A DNA stretch of 64,000 bases from assembly GCA_009782785.1 (NCBI GenBank), contig WRIJ01000001.1, positions 124,001 through 188,000 of the forward strand, read 5' to 3'. Below, in pieces: positions 12,242 to 20,873 of the stretch (within the stretch, counting starts at the first letter, position 1; each line of letters starts with the position of its first letter). The notes under the pieces were generated by a model that ran no database searches, was not told where the DNA came from, and saw nothing but the letters and a program-made list of their open reading frames with translations. The DNA comes from Propionibacteriaceae bacterium. GTDB taxonomy: Bacteria > Actinomycetota > Actinomycetes > Propionibacteriales > Propionibacteriaceae. Both the position numbers and the translations under genes were made by a program.

Positions 12242-14254
12242 ATGGCTGATTATTCTGATCTTTTGGTAGCAACTAAGGCTGTTGAGGATCCTAGTACGAC
12301 TGGGGCTGATTTAGCTCTGATTGCTCAGGGGCACCCGAGTTTGCACTCTCAGATTGCTTCCCACCCGAATGTCTACCCTGATCTCGTCACGTGGATGAAA
12401 GATTATCCTGGTGCACCAACTGCTGAGGACATACCCGAGGCGGAAGGTGACAAGACAACCTCCGAGGAGGAAGCTACACCAGAAGAAGGAGCTACACCAG
12501 AAGAAGGAGCTGCACCAGAAGAGGGCACTCAACCAGTAGCAGGGACCCAGCCAGCGGAGGTAACTCCACCGGCAGAGGCGGCTCCAAGTCAGGATGCCAC
12601 TCCCACTGAGGTGGTCACTCCAGAGATGACTGCCCCTACTGCGGTTGCCCCAATGACAGCGGCTCAACCTGGGCCGGTGGGCGTAACCCCGACTCAAGAA
12701 CAACCAGCGAGTCCTCCTCGTAAGTTTTGGAAGAAACCCAAGGTGCTGCTGAGCCTCATTGGATCTGTGGTGGTCATCGGTGTTGCCGTGGCGTTGGTGC
12801 TCATGTTCATCATCTTGCCGAACAACAAGAATCACAAAGAAGCTGTGGCTGCCTTCGATGTCGCCAGTGAAGCATGCGTGAGTGCAAACACTGCACTGGA
12901 GGAAGCCATCACCAGTGCAGGTGAAGAGGTTAAGGCAGACCCTGTCACCTTGCAAGACCCGGGCGTACTGGAGAAACTCACTGCTGAAATCGCTACTGCC
13001 CAAGGCGTCACGGCTTGTGCGGCTCCCGATATTGCGAAAGACACCGCAACGATCAAACAGCAGACGACCCAACTAGAGGAAGACACTGCTGTTGTGACCG
13101 CTGCAACCTCTACATTGAACTCGGCCACCCAGGCTGTGAAGGATAGTGCACGAGACAAGCAAGCTGCTCAAGCAAAATTGGCCTCCCTTCAATTGACAAC
13201 CAAGAACAACTGGTATTGGGCGGGTGGCATTCTCCTTGAAGGAGGTGGCGGAACTACTCTCACCTTCTGGATGCCTGGAATGGATGCCACTGGGTCGTGT
13301 ACTTTGTCAGTTCTGAAGTCCAATGAAACGATGATTGGTGGGTACCACACAGCAGCAACCACTGCGGAGAACCCAGTTGTTGCCATTGTCTATTCAGTCA
13401 TTACTGCGGCTGAAGGACTGACCCCGCAATCCAAACAGATTTACGTACAAACCATGGATCCGAAATCATGTGCCTTGGGGGAGAGAATCACCGTCACAGA
13501 TGATTCTGACCTCATTGACGGTAGGAATGAACCGGTATTTGTTGGCATGTCCGACACTATGCTGGCGGTTCAAACATCTCAGCGAAGTTGGGTCGGGTTT
13601 GTTGTGAACATGGAGACCAAATCAGTTGGCTGGAAGCTAACCCAGTCAGACTATAAGGAAATCACTCAACTGGGCGACGATATTATCTGTGCACAGAGCG
13701 GTTTCTACACCCTGTCGACTGGCAAAAAGATTGATGCCTTAGCCTCAGCACCGTGCCGTGGAAGCTGGCAAATAAGTGATGACAGAATCATACTGGACAA
13801 GACTTGGGCCAATGACCCGTACTTGGTCTGGTCTGGAAATAAAGTGTCAGAAATCAAACCATCCCTCAGTGGAGTAACAGTTCAAGTTCACGTTATCTCA
13901 GACATGTGGACACCGGACAAGGGAAGAGTCCTCATTGTTGGTACGCACTCAGGACACTATGCCCAGAACGCACTGGGATATATCTCAGCGGACAATGAAA
14001 TCCACGAAATCATGAAACCAGATCTTGTTAACTCTCTCAAGCTTGAGTTTTACGGTGCCTCCATGGGGACACTCTATGTGAAGACCACTGACCAAAATGT
14101 CACCATGGGTATTGATGGGAAAGAGATTGGCACATGGTCGGGATGGTATCCCACCAGTGAGCGCAAGATTGGCGGAAATGTCTACACTCTGTGGTCTCAA
14201 GAGGGCAAGGATGCGAGCACAGTCATGACCGTCAATGGGCGTGTCCCCAACTAG
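12242..14254 (+). CDS. LRV-module membrane protein with Pro/Glu-rich linker and large outer domain
   Basis: Function unknown. The first 55 residues form the actinobacterial LRV (leucine-rich repeat variant) module, with DPSTTGADLALIAQGHPSLH, followed by HPNVYPDLVTWM. A long Pro, Thr, Glu and Ala-rich linker (about 56-160) includes a three-copy PEEGA repeat. After a basic KKPKV stop-transfer segment comes one membrane helix (about 170-194). The outer part starts with an alanine-rich coiled-coil region (about 200-310) and then about 360 residues of beta-rich sequence with several cysteines. No signal peptide is seen, so the LRV end should be cytoplasmic. AAAGGTAGG precedes the ATG. A shorter protein with the same N-terminal plan follows 52 bases later. 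Confidence 0.85.
   Translation: MADYSDLLVATKAVEDPSTTGADLALIAQGHPSLHSQIASHPNVYPDLVTWMKDYPGAPTAEDIPEAEGDKTTSEEEATPEEGATPEEGAAPEEGTQPVAGTQPAEVTPPAEAAPSQDATPTEVVTPEMTAPTAVAPMTAAQPGPVGVTPTQEQPASPPRKFWKKPKVLLSLIGSVVVIGVAVALVLMFIILPNNKNHKEAVAAFDVASEACVSANTALEEAITSAGEEVKADPVTLQDPGVLEKLTAEIATAQGVTACAAPDIAKDTATIKQQTTQLEEDTAVVTAATSTLNSATQAVKDSARDKQAAQAKLASLQLTTKNNWYWAGGILLEGGGGTTLTFWMPGMDATGSCTLSVLKSNETMIGGYHTAATTAENPVVAIVYSVITAAEGLTPQSKQIYVQTMDPKSCALGERITVTDDSDLIDGRNEPVFVGMSDTMLAVQTSQRSWVGFVVNMETKSVGWKLTQSDYKEITQLGDDIICAQSGFYTLSTGKKIDALASAPCRGSWQISDDRIILDKTWANDPYLVWSGNKVSEIKPSLSGVTVQVHVISDMWTPDKGRVLIVGTHSGHYAQNALGYISADNEIHEIMKPDLVNSLKLEFYGASMGTLYVKTTDQNVTMGIDGKEIGTWSGWYPTSERKIGGNVYTLWSQEGKDASTVMTVNGRVPN
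12473..12526 (+). repeat. In-frame 18-base tandem repeat, three copies, in the linker of the LRV protein
   Basis: Units 12473-12490 and 12491-12508 are identical (GCTACACCAGAAGAAGGA), and 12509-12526 differs at three positions. Each codes for ATPEEG or a close variant. Length variation by multiples of six residues between strains would be expected from slippage. Confidence 0.8.
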
Positions 14255-14306: not shown

Positions 14307-15311
14307 ATGGCTGATTATTCCGACTTGGTGGTTGCGACGAAGGTTGTCGTGGATCCCAGTACGAGTGGGGTGGATCTTGCCTTGATCGCAGCTGCACAAC
14401 CAAGCTTGCACGCCCAAATTGCTGCTCATCCACATATCTACCCAGACTTGATAACGTGGATGGGCGCTCAGAAACCATTGAGTCCTCCAGTTCAAAACGT
14501 GGGGGCTACGCCCTCTTACGTGGCACCGGTTGGTGGTGGGGGAGCGCCAACATTAGCCACATCACCCAAGAAATCACGCACAGGTCTTCTTGTGGGGACT
14601 CTGGTGACTGTCGTTGCCCTGATTGCAGCTGGGATAGGCCTGTTCCTGTGGCAACCCTGGAATTCTTCACCAGCGGTAGCACCCAGCGAGTCCCCAACAA
14701 CAGAATCCATCCGCGAACTACCACCGGTACTAACCACGGAACAGTATGCTTTTCTCCTCATCGATCCGGGATCGGTCTTCTATAGTGACAACCCATTTGC
14801 CATTATTGAAGGTGGGGATACACCTGGTCGCTACTCGTCGCCAGGGGATCTGATCTGGGACAAGGCGAATAACAAGATATTCGATATATGTGGGGGCGTC
14901 CAGTATGTGCGACCGCTCCCCGGCTGCCTCCACGGAATAGGTATGTCGGAAATGGGTGGTAGCGGCCTTGAATCCTATGCTGTGGGTGCCTATCTCTTTT
15001 CAACACCCGAGGAAGCCCGAGAAGCAGCGAGATCTAGTGCACGTGATTTTGGTGAAATGCTTCGCACAGATTGGGGTTCGGCTGCGAGTGTAGTCAGCTC
15101 AGAGAATTCCGGTGCCTACGCTGACAACTATATTTGGTACGAAATATATTCGATCTCTGCCTACAACTGGTCTGGTCATTCAGGGTATATGCAATACGGA
15201 AATGTCATGATTCAGCTTGAATCTGACATTGGAACACCTTGGAGCGATGCTGACGCACAGAGGGTGGCAACAGCTTTTGCTCAATCGGTTGACGTTGCCT
15301 TCCAGCAGTAA
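14307..15311 (+). CDS. Second LRV-module membrane protein, paralogue of the preceding gene at its N-terminus
   Basis: A 334-residue protein whose first 52 residues repeat the LRV module of the preceding gene almost residue for residue (MADYSDLVVATKVV, DPSTSGVDLALIAAAQPSLH, HPHIYPDLITWM). The similarity stops at the linker. A Pro/Gly-rich stretch, a SPKKSRT basic patch and one membrane helix (about 93-116) lead to an outer domain of about 210 residues that is unlike the other protein's. That domain (AVGAYLFSTPEEAREAARSSA and NVMIQLESD near the end) faintly recalls the PknH-type extracellular sensor fold, but I cannot confirm this. Probably cotranscribed with the first LRV gene; AGAAGAGAT precedes the ATG. 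Confidence 0.85.
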   Translation: MADYSDLVVATKVVVDPSTSGVDLALIAAAQPSLHAQIAAHPHIYPDLITWMGAQKPLSPPVQNVGATPSYVAPVGGGGAPTLATSPKKSRTGLLVGTLVTVVALIAAGIGLFLWQPWNSSPAVAPSESPTTESIRELPPVLTTEQYAFLLIDPGSVFYSDNPFAIIEGGDTPGRYSSPGDLIWDKANNKIFDICGGVQYVRPLPGCLHGIGMSEMGGSGLESYAVGAYLFSTPEEAREAARSSARDFGEMLRTDWGSAASVVSSENSGAYADNYIWYEIYSISAYNWSGHSGYMQYGNVMIQLESDIGTPWSDADAQRVATAFAQSVDVAFQQ

Positions 15312-16943: not shown

Positions 16944-18335
16944 CTAGAAGTTCGTCATCTGCCCGCCCACTCCTTCAGCGGCTTCTTTGAGTGCTTCTGA
17001 CAAAGTTGGGTGAGCATGGATGGTGCGCGCAATCTCATCAGCTGTGAGATCCCAGGTGCAAGCTAGGGTGAGCTCTGGGAGAAGTTCTGTGACATCAGGG
17101 CCTACCATGTGGGCTCCCAAGATCTCATTGTGGGTAGCATCGGCAACAATTTTGACAAATCCTGTACCCTTCCCCAGTGCCCAAGCTTTTCCGTTAGCAG
17201 CGAAAGGGAATTTTGATACTCGAACATCGTTTCCTTTCTCTTTAGCTTGAGCTTCGGTGTATCCAAAGGAGGCAACCTGTGGTTCACCATAGATTGCCCG
17301 AGGGATCATGTCATAGTCGAGAGGCAGGGGCGCTCCCCCAGCTATTGCTTCAGCTGCCACGACACCTTGGGCTTCGGCCACGTGAGCAAGCATCAGTTTT
17401 CCTGTGACGTCACCGATAGCGTAGAGCCCAGGGACGGATGTTTTCATCATGGCATCGATAGAGATAGCTCCTTGTTCGGTGAGTTCGACTCCAGTCGATT
17501 CCAGCCCGTACCCAGTTGTTCGCGGTTGGAAACCTGTGGCGATCATCACTTGGTCAGCTTCGATTTGTTGGGTGTTCTCACCACTGCTGATGGTGACTTT
17601 GGCAGCTTTCATGTCCTGAATGATGGAATCCACACTGGATGAGGTATGGATGGTAATTCCTAGCGCTTTATACGCTTTGGTCACTTCAGCAGAAACCTCT
17701 GCGTCTTCCATTGGCAAGAGGCGCCCCTGGGTTTCTACCACGGTGACGCTCACCCCATAACTAGCAAGAATATAGGCGAATTCAGTACCAATTGCTCCCC
17801 CACCGACGATGATCACTGATCGGGGAAGGTTGGGTGACATAATGAGCTGCTCATAGGTCATGACCCGCGGCCCGGGTGTGATTCCAGGCAGCATGGCAGG
17901 CGTGGCACCTGTGGCAATAATGCAATGATCGAACGTGAGGTTCTCCATCACCCCAGTATCGAAGGTGACACAGAGTTTCTTTGGCCCTTTGAACTCTCCA
18001 GTCCCTGAATACTCGGTGATCTTGTTCTTTTTCATCAGGAAATGAATTCCTTGGACCATTCGATCTGAGACCGTACGAGAGCGGCTGAAAGCTGCACCAT
18101 AATCACAGGTAGCATCACCCATAATGCCAAAGGTTTTCTTCTCTCGGCTGAGTATCTGCGCAATTTCTGCGTTGCGGAGTAAGGATTTGGTGGGAATACA
18201 CCCCACATTAAGGCAGACACCCCCCCACCACTGCTTCTCTACGACGGCAGTTTTCATGCCTTGCTGGGCGCAACGGATGGCGGCAACATATCCGCCAGGT
18301 CCACCGCCGAGAATCACAGTATCAAAGTGGGTCAT
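16944..18335 (-). CDS. lpd: Dihydrolipoyl dehydrogenase (E3)
   Basis: FAD-dependent enzyme that reoxidises the dihydrolipoyl groups of 2-oxoacid dehydrogenase complexes or the glycine cleavage system with NAD+. The 463 residues show the FAD-binding GGGPGGYVAAIRCAQQG, the redox disulfide pair Cys41 and Cys46 in GGVCLNVGCIPTKS, the NAD-binding VIIVGGGAIGTEFAYI, the second FAD motif GLYAIGDVTG and the C-terminal active-site HAHPTLSEALKEA. No E1 or E2 genes are nearby. A -10 box lies exactly six bases before the ATG with no usable ribosome binding site, so a leaderless message is likely. Confidence 0.96.
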   Translation of the reverse strand: MTHFDTVILGGGPGGYVAAIRCAQQGMKTAVVEKQWWGGVCLNVGCIPTKSLLRNAEIAQILSREKKTFGIMGDATCDYGAAFSRSRTVSDRMVQGIHFLMKKNKITEYSGTGEFKGPKKLCVTFDTGVMENLTFDHCIIATGATPAMLPGITPGPRVMTYEQLIMSPNLPRSVIIVGGGAIGTEFAYILASYGVSVTVVETQGRLLPMEDAEVSAEVTKAYKALGITIHTSSSVDSIIQDMKAAKVTISSGENTQQIEADQVMIATGFQPRTTGYGLESTGVELTEQGAISIDAMMKTSVPGLYAIGDVTGKLMLAHVAEAQGVVAAEAIAGGAPLPLDYDMIPRAIYGEPQVASFGYTEAQAKEKGNDVRVSKFPFAANGKAWALGKGTGFVKIVADATHNEILGAHMVGPDVTELLPELTLACTWDLTADEIARTIHAHPTLSEALKEAAEGVGGQMTNF

Positions 18336-18341
18336 GTCCTT

Positions 18342-18347
18342 ACTCTA
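18342..18347 (-). promoter_or_regulatory. Leaderless-type -10 box of lpd
   Basis: TAGAGT on the minus strand ends six bases before the lpd ATG, which places the expected transcription start on the A of the start codon. The AAGGA close to the ATG is too near to act as a ribosome binding site. Confidence 0.5.
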
Positions 18348-18353
18348 TATCCC

Positions 18354-18386
18354 ACACTCACTGATGTCAGTTCACAGTGTGAGTGT
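18354..18386. promoter_or_regulatory. Nested inverted repeats between lpd and the HTH-MurA gene
   Basis: ACACTCAC (18354-18361) is the exact reverse complement of GTGAGTGT (18379-18386), and between them sits CTGATGTCAG (18361-18370), itself a 4-2-4 palindrome. The block lies just upstream of the lpd -10 box, at the place where a repressor or activator of lpd would bind. The regulator is not identified. Confidence 0.4.
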
Positions 18387-18450
18387 CTAGGAGATGGACA
18401 ACCCTCCTTGTCTGAGCTCAGTCATGACTTCACAGCTGAACTCCATCAAA

Positions 18451-18472
18451 TATCTCATGTATGAGATAGGAT
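18451..18472 (+). promoter_or_regulatory. Palindromic operator overlapping the -10 box of the HTH-MurA gene
   Basis: TATCTCATGTATGAGATA (18451-18468) is a perfect 8-2-8 palindrome. Its right end runs into TAGGAT (18467-18472), which lies six bases before the ATG at 18479, so transcription should start at or next to the start codon. A protein bound to the palindrome would block the promoter. The gene's own N-terminal HTH domain is the obvious candidate for binding it. Confidence 0.65.
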
Positions 18473-18478
18473 GTTCCT

Positions 18479-20002
18479 ATGGTGACATCTGCACAAGAAA
18501 TCGGCCTGTTGGTACGGGAAGCCCGACTTGCGAAAGCTATGACCCAAACCGACTTAGCCCATGCGCTCAACACCTCCCAAAGCGCTATCGGGCGCATCGA
18601 AGCCGGGAATCAGAATCTTTCCCTGGACATGGTCAATCGAATCTCAGCAGTACTCGATAAGCAGCTCATTACTCCAGGCAGTGGAACGGTCAATCTCTCG
18701 ATTGAAGGAGGTCGGAAACTGCATGGCTCAATCGAAACTCGCTCGTCAAAGAATGCTGCCGTCTCCACCTTATGTGCATCCCTCCTCAACAAAGGTCGCA
18801 CCACCTTACGTGGAATTGCCAGAATCGAAGAGGTCAATCGCCTCGTCGAGGTTCTCACCAGCATTGGAGTGGAATGCCAGTGGAGCCAAGACCAGTCAGA
18901 ATTGACCATCACACCTCCAGAAACTCTTGATCTGGCCTCCATGGATGCAGATGCTGCTCGGCGTACTCGATCCATCTTGCTCTTCCTCGGGCCTCTGATG
19001 CATCTGGCCAGCACTTTCGCACTCCCCTATGCTGGGGGATGCAACTTAGGAACGCGAACAGTGGAGCCACACCTCCAAGCATTGCGCCACCTAGGCCTGT
19101 CGGTGGAAGCAACCGAGGGTTTTTATCACTGCGATGTTTCACCTTTAGCCGAAAACCATCGCCAATTTGCCCTCACCGAACGTGGAGACACGGTCACTGA
19201 GAATGCCATCATGGCAGCTGCGCGAGCTCCTGGAGTGACAACGATTCGCAATGCCAGCTCCAACTACATGGTTCAAGACCTCTGTGCCTTCCTGCTGGCC
19301 ATGGGGGTGACCATCGAGGGAGTAGGGTCAACCACCTTGATCATCCACGGGGTAGAAGACATCGACCTCGATGTCGTGTACGACATCTCTGAGGATCCGA
19401 TCGAATCGATGAGCCTGCTCACCGCTGCTATAGCCACTGACTCAGAGCTCACCATCACACGTATCCCCATCGAATTCATGGAAATTGAATTAGCTGTCTT
19501 GGAGTCTATGAAGCTCAACTATTCGCTCTCCGAAGAATACACCTCACGCAACCACATCACTCGACTAGCTGACCTTACCGTGAAACCCTCAGAACTGATT
19601 GCCCCGGTGGATAAGATTCACCCCATGCCCTTCCCCGGGCTCAACATCGACAATCTGCCATTCTTTGTTGTCATTGCAGCTATGGCTGAAGGTTCCACGA
19701 CAATCTTTGATTGGGTGTACGAACACCGCATGATCCACATGATGGGACTCAACAAACTCGGCGTGAACCTCACCCTACTGGACCCACATCGCCTCTTGGT
19801 CAATGGGCCAACCAGGTGGAGAGGTGGAGGAGAAATCGTATCCCCACCGGCCCTGCGTCCAGCGGTCTGCCTCTTCTTGGCTGCGTTAGGTGCTCGTGGG
19901 GAAACTATCCTGGAAGACACCTATGTCATTTCTCGTGGCTACGAGGAACTTCCCGCACGGCTCAATGCACTAGGAGCCAATGTTCACTCTTTCTTAAACT
20001 AG
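18479..20002 (+). CDS. XRE-type HTH domain fused to UDP-GlcNAc enolpyruvyl transferase (MurA-like)
   Basis: Residues 1-62 form a Cro/C1-type helix-turn-helix (REARLAKAMTQTDLAHALNT, SQSAIGRIEAGN). From about 70 to 507 the protein is a MurA, which transfers enolpyruvate from PEP to UDP-GlcNAc in the first committed step of peptidoglycan synthesis. Catalytic features are kept: Lys91-Asn92 in SSKNAAV, Cys188 in AGGCNLGTRT (E. coli Cys115), the aspartate in LNIDNLPFF, the arginine of EHRMIHM and the arginine of PPALRPAV. The enzyme is therefore probably active, and sensitive to fosfomycin through Cys188. HTH-MurA fusions exist in other actinobacteria as I recall; their regulatory role is not established to my knowledge. 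The message looks leaderless. Confidence 0.9.
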   Translation: MVTSAQEIGLLVREARLAKAMTQTDLAHALNTSQSAIGRIEAGNQNLSLDMVNRISAVLDKQLITPGSGTVNLSIEGGRKLHGSIETRSSKNAAVSTLCASLLNKGRTTLRGIARIEEVNRLVEVLTSIGVECQWSQDQSELTITPPETLDLASMDADAARRTRSILLFLGPLMHLASTFALPYAGGCNLGTRTVEPHLQALRHLGLSVEATEGFYHCDVSPLAENHRQFALTERGDTVTENAIMAAARAPGVTTIRNASSNYMVQDLCAFLLAMGVTIEGVGSTTLIIHGVEDIDLDVVYDISEDPIESMSLLTAAIATDSELTITRIPIEFMEIELAVLESMKLNYSLSEEYTSRNHITRLADLTVKPSELIAPVDKIHPMPFPGLNIDNLPFFVVIAAMAEGSTTIFDWVYEHRMIHMMGLNKLGVNLTLLDPHRLLVNGPTRWRGGGEIVSPPALRPAVCLFLAALGARGETILEDTYVISRGYEELPARLNALGANVHSFLN

Positions 20003-20018
20003 CTCAGCTCTGGTATGG

Positions 20019-20873
20019 CTAGCGGATATGGCGTACGGGAAAATGAAAACTTGGCTCAACAAGCTGATCTTGGCCTTGGACGAGGGCGAGTTCTCTGCGT
20101 CCAAGTCGCGTGGTAGTGTCCAGAATCGAATAGACCACATCTGCGGTTCTCCCTAGTGCCAGATCAATTCTATTTGTGTCAAGGAAGTGGGCAAAAAAGA
20201 CTGCTGCAGTGAGGTCCCCTGAGCCAGTAAACACTTGATCAATGCGCGGTGTTGCAACCAGGTAGGCCTCCTGCTGGGAGGCCGCCACCATAGAAATAGA
20301 GTCTTGTGCAGACTCATCAACACTCGCTGAGGTCACCAACACCGTGGAAGGGCCTGAGTCGAGCAGTGCATCCACACTGGCAAGTAAGTCTGCTGTGGTG
20401 GATGTTTCGCCACCAGTGAGGAAGTCCAATTCAAATTGGTTCGGGGTTACGATGTCTGCTTGGGGTACGACCGAGTCACGTAAGAATTCGGGTATACCGG
20501 GGGCAACAAACATACCTCTACCCTCATCCCCCATCACCGGATCACAGCAATAGAGAGCATTGGGTTGGCGAGTCTTCACCAGATCCTTGGCTGCGAGAAT
20601 GGTTTGACCCATCTCCGTCGAACCCTGAAAGCCAGATAAAATACCATTGACGCTCTCCAAGGCGCCGCGCTCATCAACACCAGTGACAACATCCATCACA
20701 TCCTGAGAGGACAACACGGGCCCCTTCCATGAACCATAGCTGGTGGTATTGGAATAGTGGACAGTGAACACTGGGTAGGTTTCCACCCCCATCCGCATGA
20801 GGGCAAAAGCAGCCACTGAATTGCCGACATGCCCATAGGCAACAGAAGACTGGATGGAAACAATGGTGGTCAT
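20019..20873 (-). CDS. pdxY: Pyridoxal kinase (PdxY type)
   Basis: Phosphorylates pyridoxal (and related B6 vitamers) with ATP in cofactor salvage. The ribokinase-like fold shows SSVAYGHVGNSVAAFALMRMG at the N-terminus, the DPVMGDEGRGMFV loop, VTPNQFELDFLTG and the anion-hole motif FTGSGDLTAAVFFAH with the catalytic aspartate. The ATG at 20873 is chosen over an in-frame GTG two codons upstream because a CACAAT -10 box lies seven bases before it. The gene is divergent from the glycerophosphodiesterase gene across a 144-base gap holding an inverted pair of the same promoter-like sequence. Confidence 0.9.
   Translation of the reverse strand: MTTIVSIQSSVAYGHVGNSVAAFALMRMGVETYPVFTVHYSNTTSYGSWKGPVLSSQDVMDVVTGVDERGALESVNGILSGFQGSTEMGQTILAAKDLVKTRQPNALYCCDPVMGDEGRGMFVAPGIPEFLRDSVVPQADIVTPNQFELDFLTGGETSTTADLLASVDALLDSGPSTVLVTSASVDESAQDSISMVAASQQEAYLVATPRIDQVFTGSGDLTAAVFFAHFLDTNRIDLALGRTADVVYSILDTTTRLGRRELALVQGQDQLVEPSFHFPVRHIR

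What the first reader, a model, noticed from the sequence alone, without database searches (positions are those of the whole stretch)
18451..18660. HTH-MurA fusion with a perfect palindrome over its own leaderless promoter
The gene joins a Cro/C1-type HTH (residues 1-62) to an apparently active MurA. TATCTCATGTATGAGATA, an 8-2-8 perfect palindrome, runs into the TAGGAT -10 box six bases before the ATG. This layout is what a self-repressing gene needs. A cell-wall enzyme that also binds DNA could sense UDP-GlcNAc or PEP through its catalytic domain and adjust its own synthesis, or that of other wall genes carrying the same site. HTH-MurA fusions are, as I recall, known by annotation; the paired operator is what I think is new.
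Basis: partly seen in the sequence, partly recalled or inferred. Interest (0 to 1): 0.78.

Follow-up and report, generated by a model that had tools for sequence, protein, structure and literature searches.

The report
Cell-wall enzyme with self-regulating DNA switch
In many actinobacteria the enzyme that starts cell-wall building carries a DNA-binding domain matched to a palindrome over its own promoter, and lineages that spoil that domain also lose the palindrome, so the enzyme very probably controls its own production.

Summary
TATCTCATGTATGAGATA (18451-18468) is a perfect 8-2-8 palindrome overlapping the TAGGAT -10 box, six bases before the ATG of an HTH-MurA gene (18479-20002). It is the only exact site in the 1.88-Mb genome. 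The site is conserved before HTH-MurA genes across Actinomycetes, from Propionibacteriaceae to Streptomyces. Of 219 genes with upstream DNA, 194 have an intact recognition helix: 191 have a strong site, 3 a weak one. The other 25 have a changed helix and none has a site. The 13 of these 25 checked keep the leaderless -10. On a MurA-domain tree the helix changed 7 times; in 6 supported independent pairs the site went the same way in 5.8 on average, never the other way (median p 0.03). In this family HTH-MurA appears to be the only MurA (56 of 57 genomes). Best reading: the enzyme represses its own promoter, like a trigger enzyme (BirA, PutA) placed at the committed step of peptidoglycan synthesis. 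A wider wall regulon is not supported. Sensing of UDP-GlcNAc or PEP is untested. Ten open-library searches found no description of this operator.

The parts
18451..18468 (+). operator palindrome TATCTCAT-GT-ATGAGATA
   Evidence: profile score 31.3 bits, shuffle maximum 11.5
18467..18472 (+). -10 element TAGGAT of the murA promoter, sharing TA with the palindrome
   Evidence: TANNNT at this place in 187 of 204 site-bearing loci; no -35 found
18479..20002 (+). HTH-MurA gene, 507 aa, probably leaderless (start codon six bases after the -10)
   Evidence: no transcript data
18512..18664 (+). HTH_3 (Cro/C1-type) domain, residues 12-62
   Evidence: nearest solved relatives include restriction-modification controller proteins
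18578..18616 (+). recognition helix and following loop, residues 34-46 (QSAIGRIEAGNQN); Q34, A36, R39, Q45, N46 invariant in 77 of 77 rows labelled site-bearing
   Evidence: 2 of the 77, L009 and L026, have no upstream DNA
18704..19957 (+). MurA (UDP-GlcNAc enolpyruvyl transferase) domain, residues 76-493
19040..19042 (+). codon of Cys188, equivalent of E. coli MurA Cys115 (E. coli numbering recalled)
   Evidence: alignment to solved MurAs; invariant in 99 of 99
19850..19852 (+). codon of Ala458, at the place of E. coli MurA Asp369 (E. coli numbering recalled)
   Evidence: alignment to solved MurAs; Ala in 99 of 99

Best explanation
HTH-MurA is a bifunctional enzyme and single-target autorepressor. 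Its N-terminal HTH domains, presumably as a dimer, bind the 18-bp palindrome that fills the spacer and upstream edge of the -10 box of its own leaderless promoter. This blocks RNA polymerase and holds steady the level of the first committed enzyme of peptidoglycan synthesis. Shown here by comparison: conservation of the site, its position on the promoter, its near-uniqueness per genome, and its repeated joint loss with the DNA-reading residues. Inferred: physical binding, dimerisation, and repression rather than activation. Open: whether substrate or product binding to the MurA domain changes DNA binding.
For: Strong site (>12 bits) in 191 of 194 genes with an intact recognition helix and 0 of 25 with an altered one; in the 82 held-out genes 67 of 70 and 0 of 12. 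Both present in 80 of 80 named loci, the best 80 of 577 relatives. Q23, Q34, A36, R39, Q45 and N46 are invariant in the 77 rows labelled site-bearing and mostly replaced in the 22 without a site, while structural positions G9, R16, E41, G43 and L59 stay in all 99. Careful MurA-domain tree (96 proteins): 7 changes of the helix motif; 6 independent pairs on supported branches, site going the same way in 5.8 on average, other way 0.0 (median sign-test p 0.031, range 0.031-0.0625). All 13 no-site loci of set 1 keep TANNNT 6-8 nt before a start codon, so the palindrome is not needed for the -10 itself. With up to 2 mismatches, 13 of 23 intact-helix genomes show the murA site and 5 other places are listed; 3 of 26 genomes without HTH-MurA have any match. 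No close HTH paralogue in the own genome: next hits E 0.05 and 0.11. The palindrome overlaps the -10.
Against: No binding, expression or transcript data. Three intact-helix genes have only weak sites (8.4, 9.4 and 11.2 bits; L323, L363, L380), at the usual position but within the range of the shuffled controls. The number of independent losses is small: the first, smaller tree gave 4 supported pairs (p 0.125) and the quick version of the larger tree 5 (p 0.0625). Five other near-matches examined score 13.4-20.6 bits, overlapping the low end of murA sites; the 20.6-bit one (L154) lies near the end of a purK-like frame and could in principle act on a following gene. In g14/g4 relatives (e.g. Acidipropionibacterium jensenii, L257) the site lies further upstream of a leadered start. 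Published regulation found for a putative orthologue, S. coelicolor SCO5998, names a predicted DmdR1 site and a SigB promoter, so other inputs may exist.
Confidence: 0.82

Rival explanations
1. Another, separately encoded regulator binds the palindrome, and the HTH of MurA has some other role.
For: No binding data exist. A predicted DmdR1 site and a SigB promoter have been linked to the S. coelicolor gene SCO5998.
Against: It must explain why the DNA-reading residues of the MurA HTH and the site are lost together (5.8 of 6 supported independent pairs on average, never the other way) and why 0 of 25 altered-helix genes keep the site. The site is nearly single-copy per genome, as expected of a self-regulator.
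Confidence: 0.08
2. The palindrome is an activator site: HTH-MurA stimulates its own promoter.
For: The promoter has no recognisable -35. HTH_3 controller proteins can activate as well as repress (recalled).
Against: The site fills the spacer and overlaps the -10, a position typical of repressors (established promoter knowledge). The 13 no-site loci checked keep the -10 without it.
Confidence: 0.08
3. The palindrome is only a conserved core-promoter feature, with no bound protein.
For: It shares TA with the -10 and its position is nearly fixed relative to the start.
Against: Both arms are conserved over 18 bp, yet 13 of 13 no-site loci checked retain the leaderless -10 without the palindrome.
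Confidence: 0.02
4. HTH-MurA is a wider regulator of wall genes.
For: Matches with 2-3 mismatches exist: eight others in the own genome. Five near-matches examined score 13.4-20.6 bits.
Against: The three own-genome near-matches examined (of eight), and two from relatives, lie inside or at the end of long frames that read as guaA, a VWA-type protein, carA, a proline-rich protein and purK (names from reading the translations); none reads as a known wall-synthesis gene. Other places per genome: 0-2 with up to 2 mismatches.
Confidence: 0.03

Closest known systems
Trigger enzymes with DNA-binding domains (E. coli BirA, PutA, NadR)
   Same: [quoted passage not shown] BirA enzymes are ubiquitous but the DNA-binding domain is found only in a subset, and where it is lost the regulon apparently does not exist (PMC5343134, passages), the same pattern as here.
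   Different: The enzyme is MurA, first committed step of peptidoglycan synthesis. The target found is its own gene, whereas BirA was reported autoregulated only in Desulfovibrionales among the Proteobacteria studied. Ligand control is not shown.
HTH_3 controller proteins of restriction-modification systems (C.AhdI, C.BclI and the 3clc-type controller)
   Same: Closest solved relatives of the HTH by sequence, E 3e-5 to 1.5e-3. They regulate their own genes through palindromic operators (recalled).
   Different: Small stand-alone proteins; here the HTH is fused to a metabolic enzyme.
HipB/Y4mF-type antitoxin HTH (TIGR03070)
   Same: Best NCBIfam match of the HTH (45.7 bits, below the 71.65 cut-off). 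E. coli HipB operators are also 18-bp palindromes with TATCC ends (recalled, not tested).
   Different: The HTH is joined to MurA, not paired with a toxin.
Known MurA control: CwlM in mycobacteria, product feedback in E. coli, Clp proteolysis of MurAA in B. subtilis
   Same: MurA is the controlled committed step (PMC4946905, passages and reference titles).
   Different: These act on the protein after synthesis; here control would be by transcription through MurA's own domain.

Membership tests
MurA (UDP-GlcNAc 1-carboxyvinyltransferase) | MurA domain over its full length | tested here: met
   Residues 72-503 match NF006873 at 311.4 bits, cut-off 297; solved MurAs, best E 2e-52
MurA (UDP-GlcNAc 1-carboxyvinyltransferase) | TIGR01072 equivalog cut-off | tested here: not met
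   294.1 bits against 392.7; 0 of 57 family genomes have any match over the cut-off. A diverged subfamily.
MurA (UDP-GlcNAc 1-carboxyvinyltransferase) | catalytic and ligand residues (E. coli K22, N23, R91, C115, R120, H125, D305, R331, D369, L370, R371, R397; numbering recalled) | tested here: inconclusive
   11 of 12 invariant in 99 of 99; D369 is Ala in 99 of 99. Effect of the Ala not testable here.
MurA (UDP-GlcNAc 1-carboxyvinyltransferase) | enzyme activity | not testable with these tools
   Indirect: the only MurA found in 56 of 57 family genomes; other hits there are under 60 bits
HTH_3 / XRE DNA-binding domain | HTH_3 profile above cut-off | tested here: met
   42.5 bits, cut-off 23
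Trigger enzyme | enzyme fused to a DNA-binding domain | tested here: met
Trigger enzyme | specific DNA target | tested here: inconclusive
   Strong comparative support (conserved operator co-lost with the recognition helix); no binding experiment
Trigger enzyme | DNA binding controlled by substrate or product | not testable with these tools
   Needs an experiment; the structure job that might have hinted did not finish
BirA-type group II biotin ligase | biotin ligase domain | tested here: not met
   Pfam finds only HTH and EPSP_synthase domains. It may work like, but is not, BirA.

The most novel reading that the evidence does not exclude
HTH-MurA is a metabolite-gated homeostat of cell-wall synthesis: the open-closed motion of the MurA domain on binding UDP-GlcNAc, PEP or product changes the HTH's grip on the operator, so the enzyme reads demand for peptidoglycan precursor and sets its own transcription. 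It would be a conserved control circuit at the committed step of peptidoglycan synthesis across at least ten families of Actinomycetes.
Probability: 0.35. Interest if true: 0.87.

Novelty: new variant of a known kind. Interest (0 to 1): 0.74.

Why it matters
[quoted passage not shown] The well-studied control of it seen here acts on the protein; the transcriptional links seen are a predicted DmdR1 site and a SigB promoter for one Streptomyces gene. A MurA that regulates its own transcription would be a new control layer for the cell wall, in Streptomyces and in Propionibacteriaceae, where it appears to be the only MurA. The circuit is one gene and one 18-bp site, so it is directly testable. 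Natural lineages with a spoiled recognition helix and no site serve as ready-made comparisons. It also shows how an enzyme repeatedly loses an attached regulator.

Tried and rejected
Wider wall regulon: the own-genome scan and a 26-genome scan gave essentially one site per genome; the five near-matches examined lie inside or at the end of frames, though they score 13.4-20.6 bits. Regulation of the divergent lpdA instead of murA: lpdA is upstream in all 17 named loci L242-L258 but was not found in the flanks of the other 63 of 80, which keep the site. RNA element: no Rfam match at gathering threshold in 18000-20500. Sigma-70 promoter with -35: none on this strand. HTH-MurA outside the class: 181 of the 198 genomes lie outside; their best hits are 34-35% identity beginning near residue 72. 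Two (G407, G525) align from residue 5-7 at 30% but with a stop inside, and were not examined. A second HTH protein of the same kind in the own genome: only hits at E 0.05 and 0.11.

Gly38 proteins (16 rows) never have the TAACTC or GAGTTA half-site while His38 ones often do; not pursued, because ancestry was not controlled. PMC4255298 was searched for MurA and gave nothing relevant.

Dropped or set aside: L009 and L026 had no upstream DNA (contig ends) and were not counted for the site, but are among the 77 'with-site' rows. In the first tree L009, L026 and 11 near-identical rows were left out (86 of 99); in the second L009, L026 and 21 near-identical rows (96 of 119). Set 4 was drawn partly by similarity to an altered HTH (genus g28), set 3 is the best 80 matches; neither is a random sample. 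A few family genomes with only fragments (such as G025, G064, G086, G138) were not fetched. The helix motif and the 12-bit threshold were chosen after seeing set 1; sets 2 and 4 were scored afterwards.

Full report
WHAT IS THERE. The window is G000:C1:124001-188000 of a 1.88-Mb genome in 26 contigs. Its family is Propionibacteriaceae: the same-genus genome G075 has a contig of the same length and gene position as the Propionibacteriaceae MAG contig of L242. At 18479-20002 lies a 507-aa gene with an HTH_3 domain (residues 12-62) and a MurA domain (76-493). Before it, at 18451-18468, is TATCTCAT-GT-ATGAGATA, a perfect 8-2-8 palindrome. Its last TA is the start of TAGGAT (18467-18472), and six bases later comes the ATG. 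A simple promoter scan found no sigma-70 match on this strand, so the -10 stands without a clear -35.

MORE THAN CHANCE. One match with up to 3 mismatches in the window against 0.24 expected. In the whole genome one exact match; eight others have 2 or 3 mismatches. The three of these eight that I looked at lie inside long frames that read as guaA, a VWA-type protein and carA.

CONSERVATION. I scanned 160 bp upstream of HTH-MurA genes in four sets. Set 1 (139 loci: 30 from the family search, 29 from the class search, 80 fetched regions; 2 with no upstream DNA) was used to build a symmetric 18-bp profile; 124 have a site of 17.2-34.0 bits and 13 have none, against a maximum of 11.5 in 2,780 shuffles. 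Set 2, held out, 42 loci: 33 with a site (13.0-32.3 bits), 9 without. Set 3, 80 named loci from the search for related loci (the best 80 of 577 relatives: Propionibacteriaceae, many Streptomyces, Nocardioides, Brachybacterium, Ornithinimicrobium, Nonomuraea and others): 80 of 80 have a site; some repeat genomes of set 1. Set 4, 40 further genomes, partly chosen by similarity to an altered HTH: 34 strong sites, 3 weak, 3 none. A match to HTH-MurA was found in 145 of 147 family genomes (a few only fragments). By my count, 71 of 246 sampled class genomes (own included), in ten family codes, carry an orthologue at 58% identity or more, two of them in split pieces. In the phylum sample no intact full-length orthologue was seen outside the class.

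THE DECISIVE COMPARISON. Genes without a site have a changed recognition helix. The conserved form is T-S-Q-S-A-x-x-R-x-E-x-G-x-Q-N (scored as Q[SG][AV][IV].R.E). Over sets 1, 2 and 4, 219 genes had upstream DNA. Of 194 with the intact motif, 191 have a strong site and 3 (L323, L363, L380) a weak one (8.4-11.2 bits) at the usual position. Of 25 with an altered motif, none has a site (Fisher p 6.5e-30, which ignores shared ancestry). Held-out sets alone: 67 of 70 and 0 of 12. In the 22 altered rows the fold-forming positions G9, R16, E41, G43 and L59 are all kept, while Q23, Q34, A36, R39, Q45 and N46 are mostly replaced: the domain survives but its DNA-reading face is spoiled. Two g28 cases, G112 and G584, keep R39, Q45 and N46 but have lost Q34-S35-A36, and have no site.

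INDEPENDENCE. On a maximum-likelihood tree of the MurA domain alone (96 proteins, 436 columns, careful search) the helix motif changes 7 times. Six pairs of rows lie on well-supported independent branches; averaged over random pairings the site goes the same way in 5.8, the other way in 0.0, and does not differ in 0.2 (median sign-test p 0.031, range 0.031-0.0625). Weaker versions gave 4 pairs (86 proteins, p 0.125) and 5 pairs (quick search, p 0.0625). Rows L384 and L385, full-length fetches of the genomes of L323 and L363, are intact-helix genes scored as no site.

PROMOTER. TANNNT overlaps the site's end in 187 of 204 site-bearing loci (sets 1 and 3), and the first in-frame start codon is most often 6 or 7 bases after it (77 and 87 of 204). 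All 13 no-site loci of set 1 still have TANNNT 6-8 bases before a possible start codon (background about 0.002 per position). So the leaderless promoter survives without the palindrome, and the palindrome is a separate element laid over it. In 14 of 204 loci the first start lies more than 12 bases on; these include g14/g4 relatives and Acidipropionibacterium jensenii (L257), often with a GAAAGGA-like ribosome site, and the palindrome stays upstream.

SINGLE TARGET. With up to 2 mismatches, 13 of 23 intact-helix genomes show the murA site (the others have more diverged variants) and 5 other places are listed; the 3 altered-helix genomes (G011, G082, G022) show none; the reversed control pattern gave 0 in all 26. 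Of 26 genomes without HTH-MurA, 3 have a match and 2 a control match, which is chance level. Against a strictly single target: five near-matches examined score 13.4-20.6 bits, overlapping the weakest murA sites, and the best (L154, in G039) lies near the end of a purK-like frame. The divergent neighbour lpdA is shared by the 17 named loci L242-L258 and was not found in the other 63 of 80, which keep the site.

THE ENZYME. In 57 family genomes a MurA profile search finds the HTH-MurA gene in 56 and otherwise only hits under 60 bits (AroA-like by score, or fragments); the one miss is 77% complete. So HTH-MurA appears to be the sole MurA there. Equivalents of K22, N23, R91, C115, R120, H125, D305, R331, L370, R371 and R397 are invariant in 99 of 99; Asp369 is Ala in 99 of 99 (E. 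coli numbering recalled). Asp369 is named among ligand-interacting residues of E. coli MurA (PMC4062475, passages; also PMC10352792, passages); what Ala means here is unknown.

MECHANISM. Shown by comparison: an operator on the promoter, tied to the HTH's reading residues, with one main target. Inferred: dimer binding, since an 18-bp palindrome suggests a dimer and the HTH's nearest solved relatives include controller proteins (their autoregulation is recalled); repression by blocking RNA polymerase, since the site fills the spacer and touches the -10. Open: ligand control. The structure job never returned.

LITERATURE. Ten searches of the open library. In their listings and the passages read, no paper describing an HTH in MurA, this operator, or HTH-MurA autoregulation was found; most subscription papers, and preprints, are not held. 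S. coelicolor SCO5998 is called MurA2, one of two such enzymes, in PMC12161575, which predicts a DmdR1 site between SCO5998 and SCO5999 (passages); PMC8346170 reports a SigB-dependent promoter for it (passages). That SCO5998 is the HTH-MurA orthologue is recalled and was not tested by sequence. Trigger enzymes and BirA's patchy DNA-binding domain: PMC8249747 and PMC5343134 (passages). MurA control by CwlM, feedback and proteolysis: PMC4946905 (passages and reference titles).

VERDICT. The paired operator is real and, as far as these searches show, undescribed. The protein works like a trigger enzyme whose main target is its own gene. Membership in the trigger-enzyme group needs binding and ligand tests. 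Wider wall control is not supported.

Noticed in passing
L162-L174, L180, L181, L222-L228: The 22 rows with a spoiled recognition helix keep the HTH fold positions G9, R16, E41, G43 and L59, hinting at a second, structural or enzymatic role of the domain.
   Followed up: partly
19850-19852 (Ala458): Position of E. coli MurA Asp369 is Ala in all 99 HTH-MurA proteins examined, including genomes where it is the only MurA found.
   Followed up: partly
L032, L069-L071, L073, L075, L076, L100, L257: In g14/g4-type relatives and Acidipropionibacterium jensenii the start codon lies further downstream with a leader, while the palindrome stays at the promoter.
   Followed up: partly
G227:C1:1261858-1263356 (L382): HTH-MurA open frame appears broken into two overlapping pieces in different frames, with an altered recognition helix and no site; could be real decay or a sequencing error.
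   Followed up: no
L154 (G039:C1:2512783-2512800): A 20.6-bit near-match to the operator near the end of a purK-like frame, the strongest of the five near-matches away from murA that were scored.
   Followed up: no
site-bearing loci, residue 38: Proteins with Gly38 (16 rows) never have TAACTC or GAGTTA half-sites, those with His38 often do; possible residue-level specificity, ancestry not controlled.
   Followed up: partly
12242-14254 and 14307-15311: Two neighbouring ORFs begin with nearly the same N-terminal stretch (MADYSDL.VATK...), an apparent local duplication.
   Followed up: no
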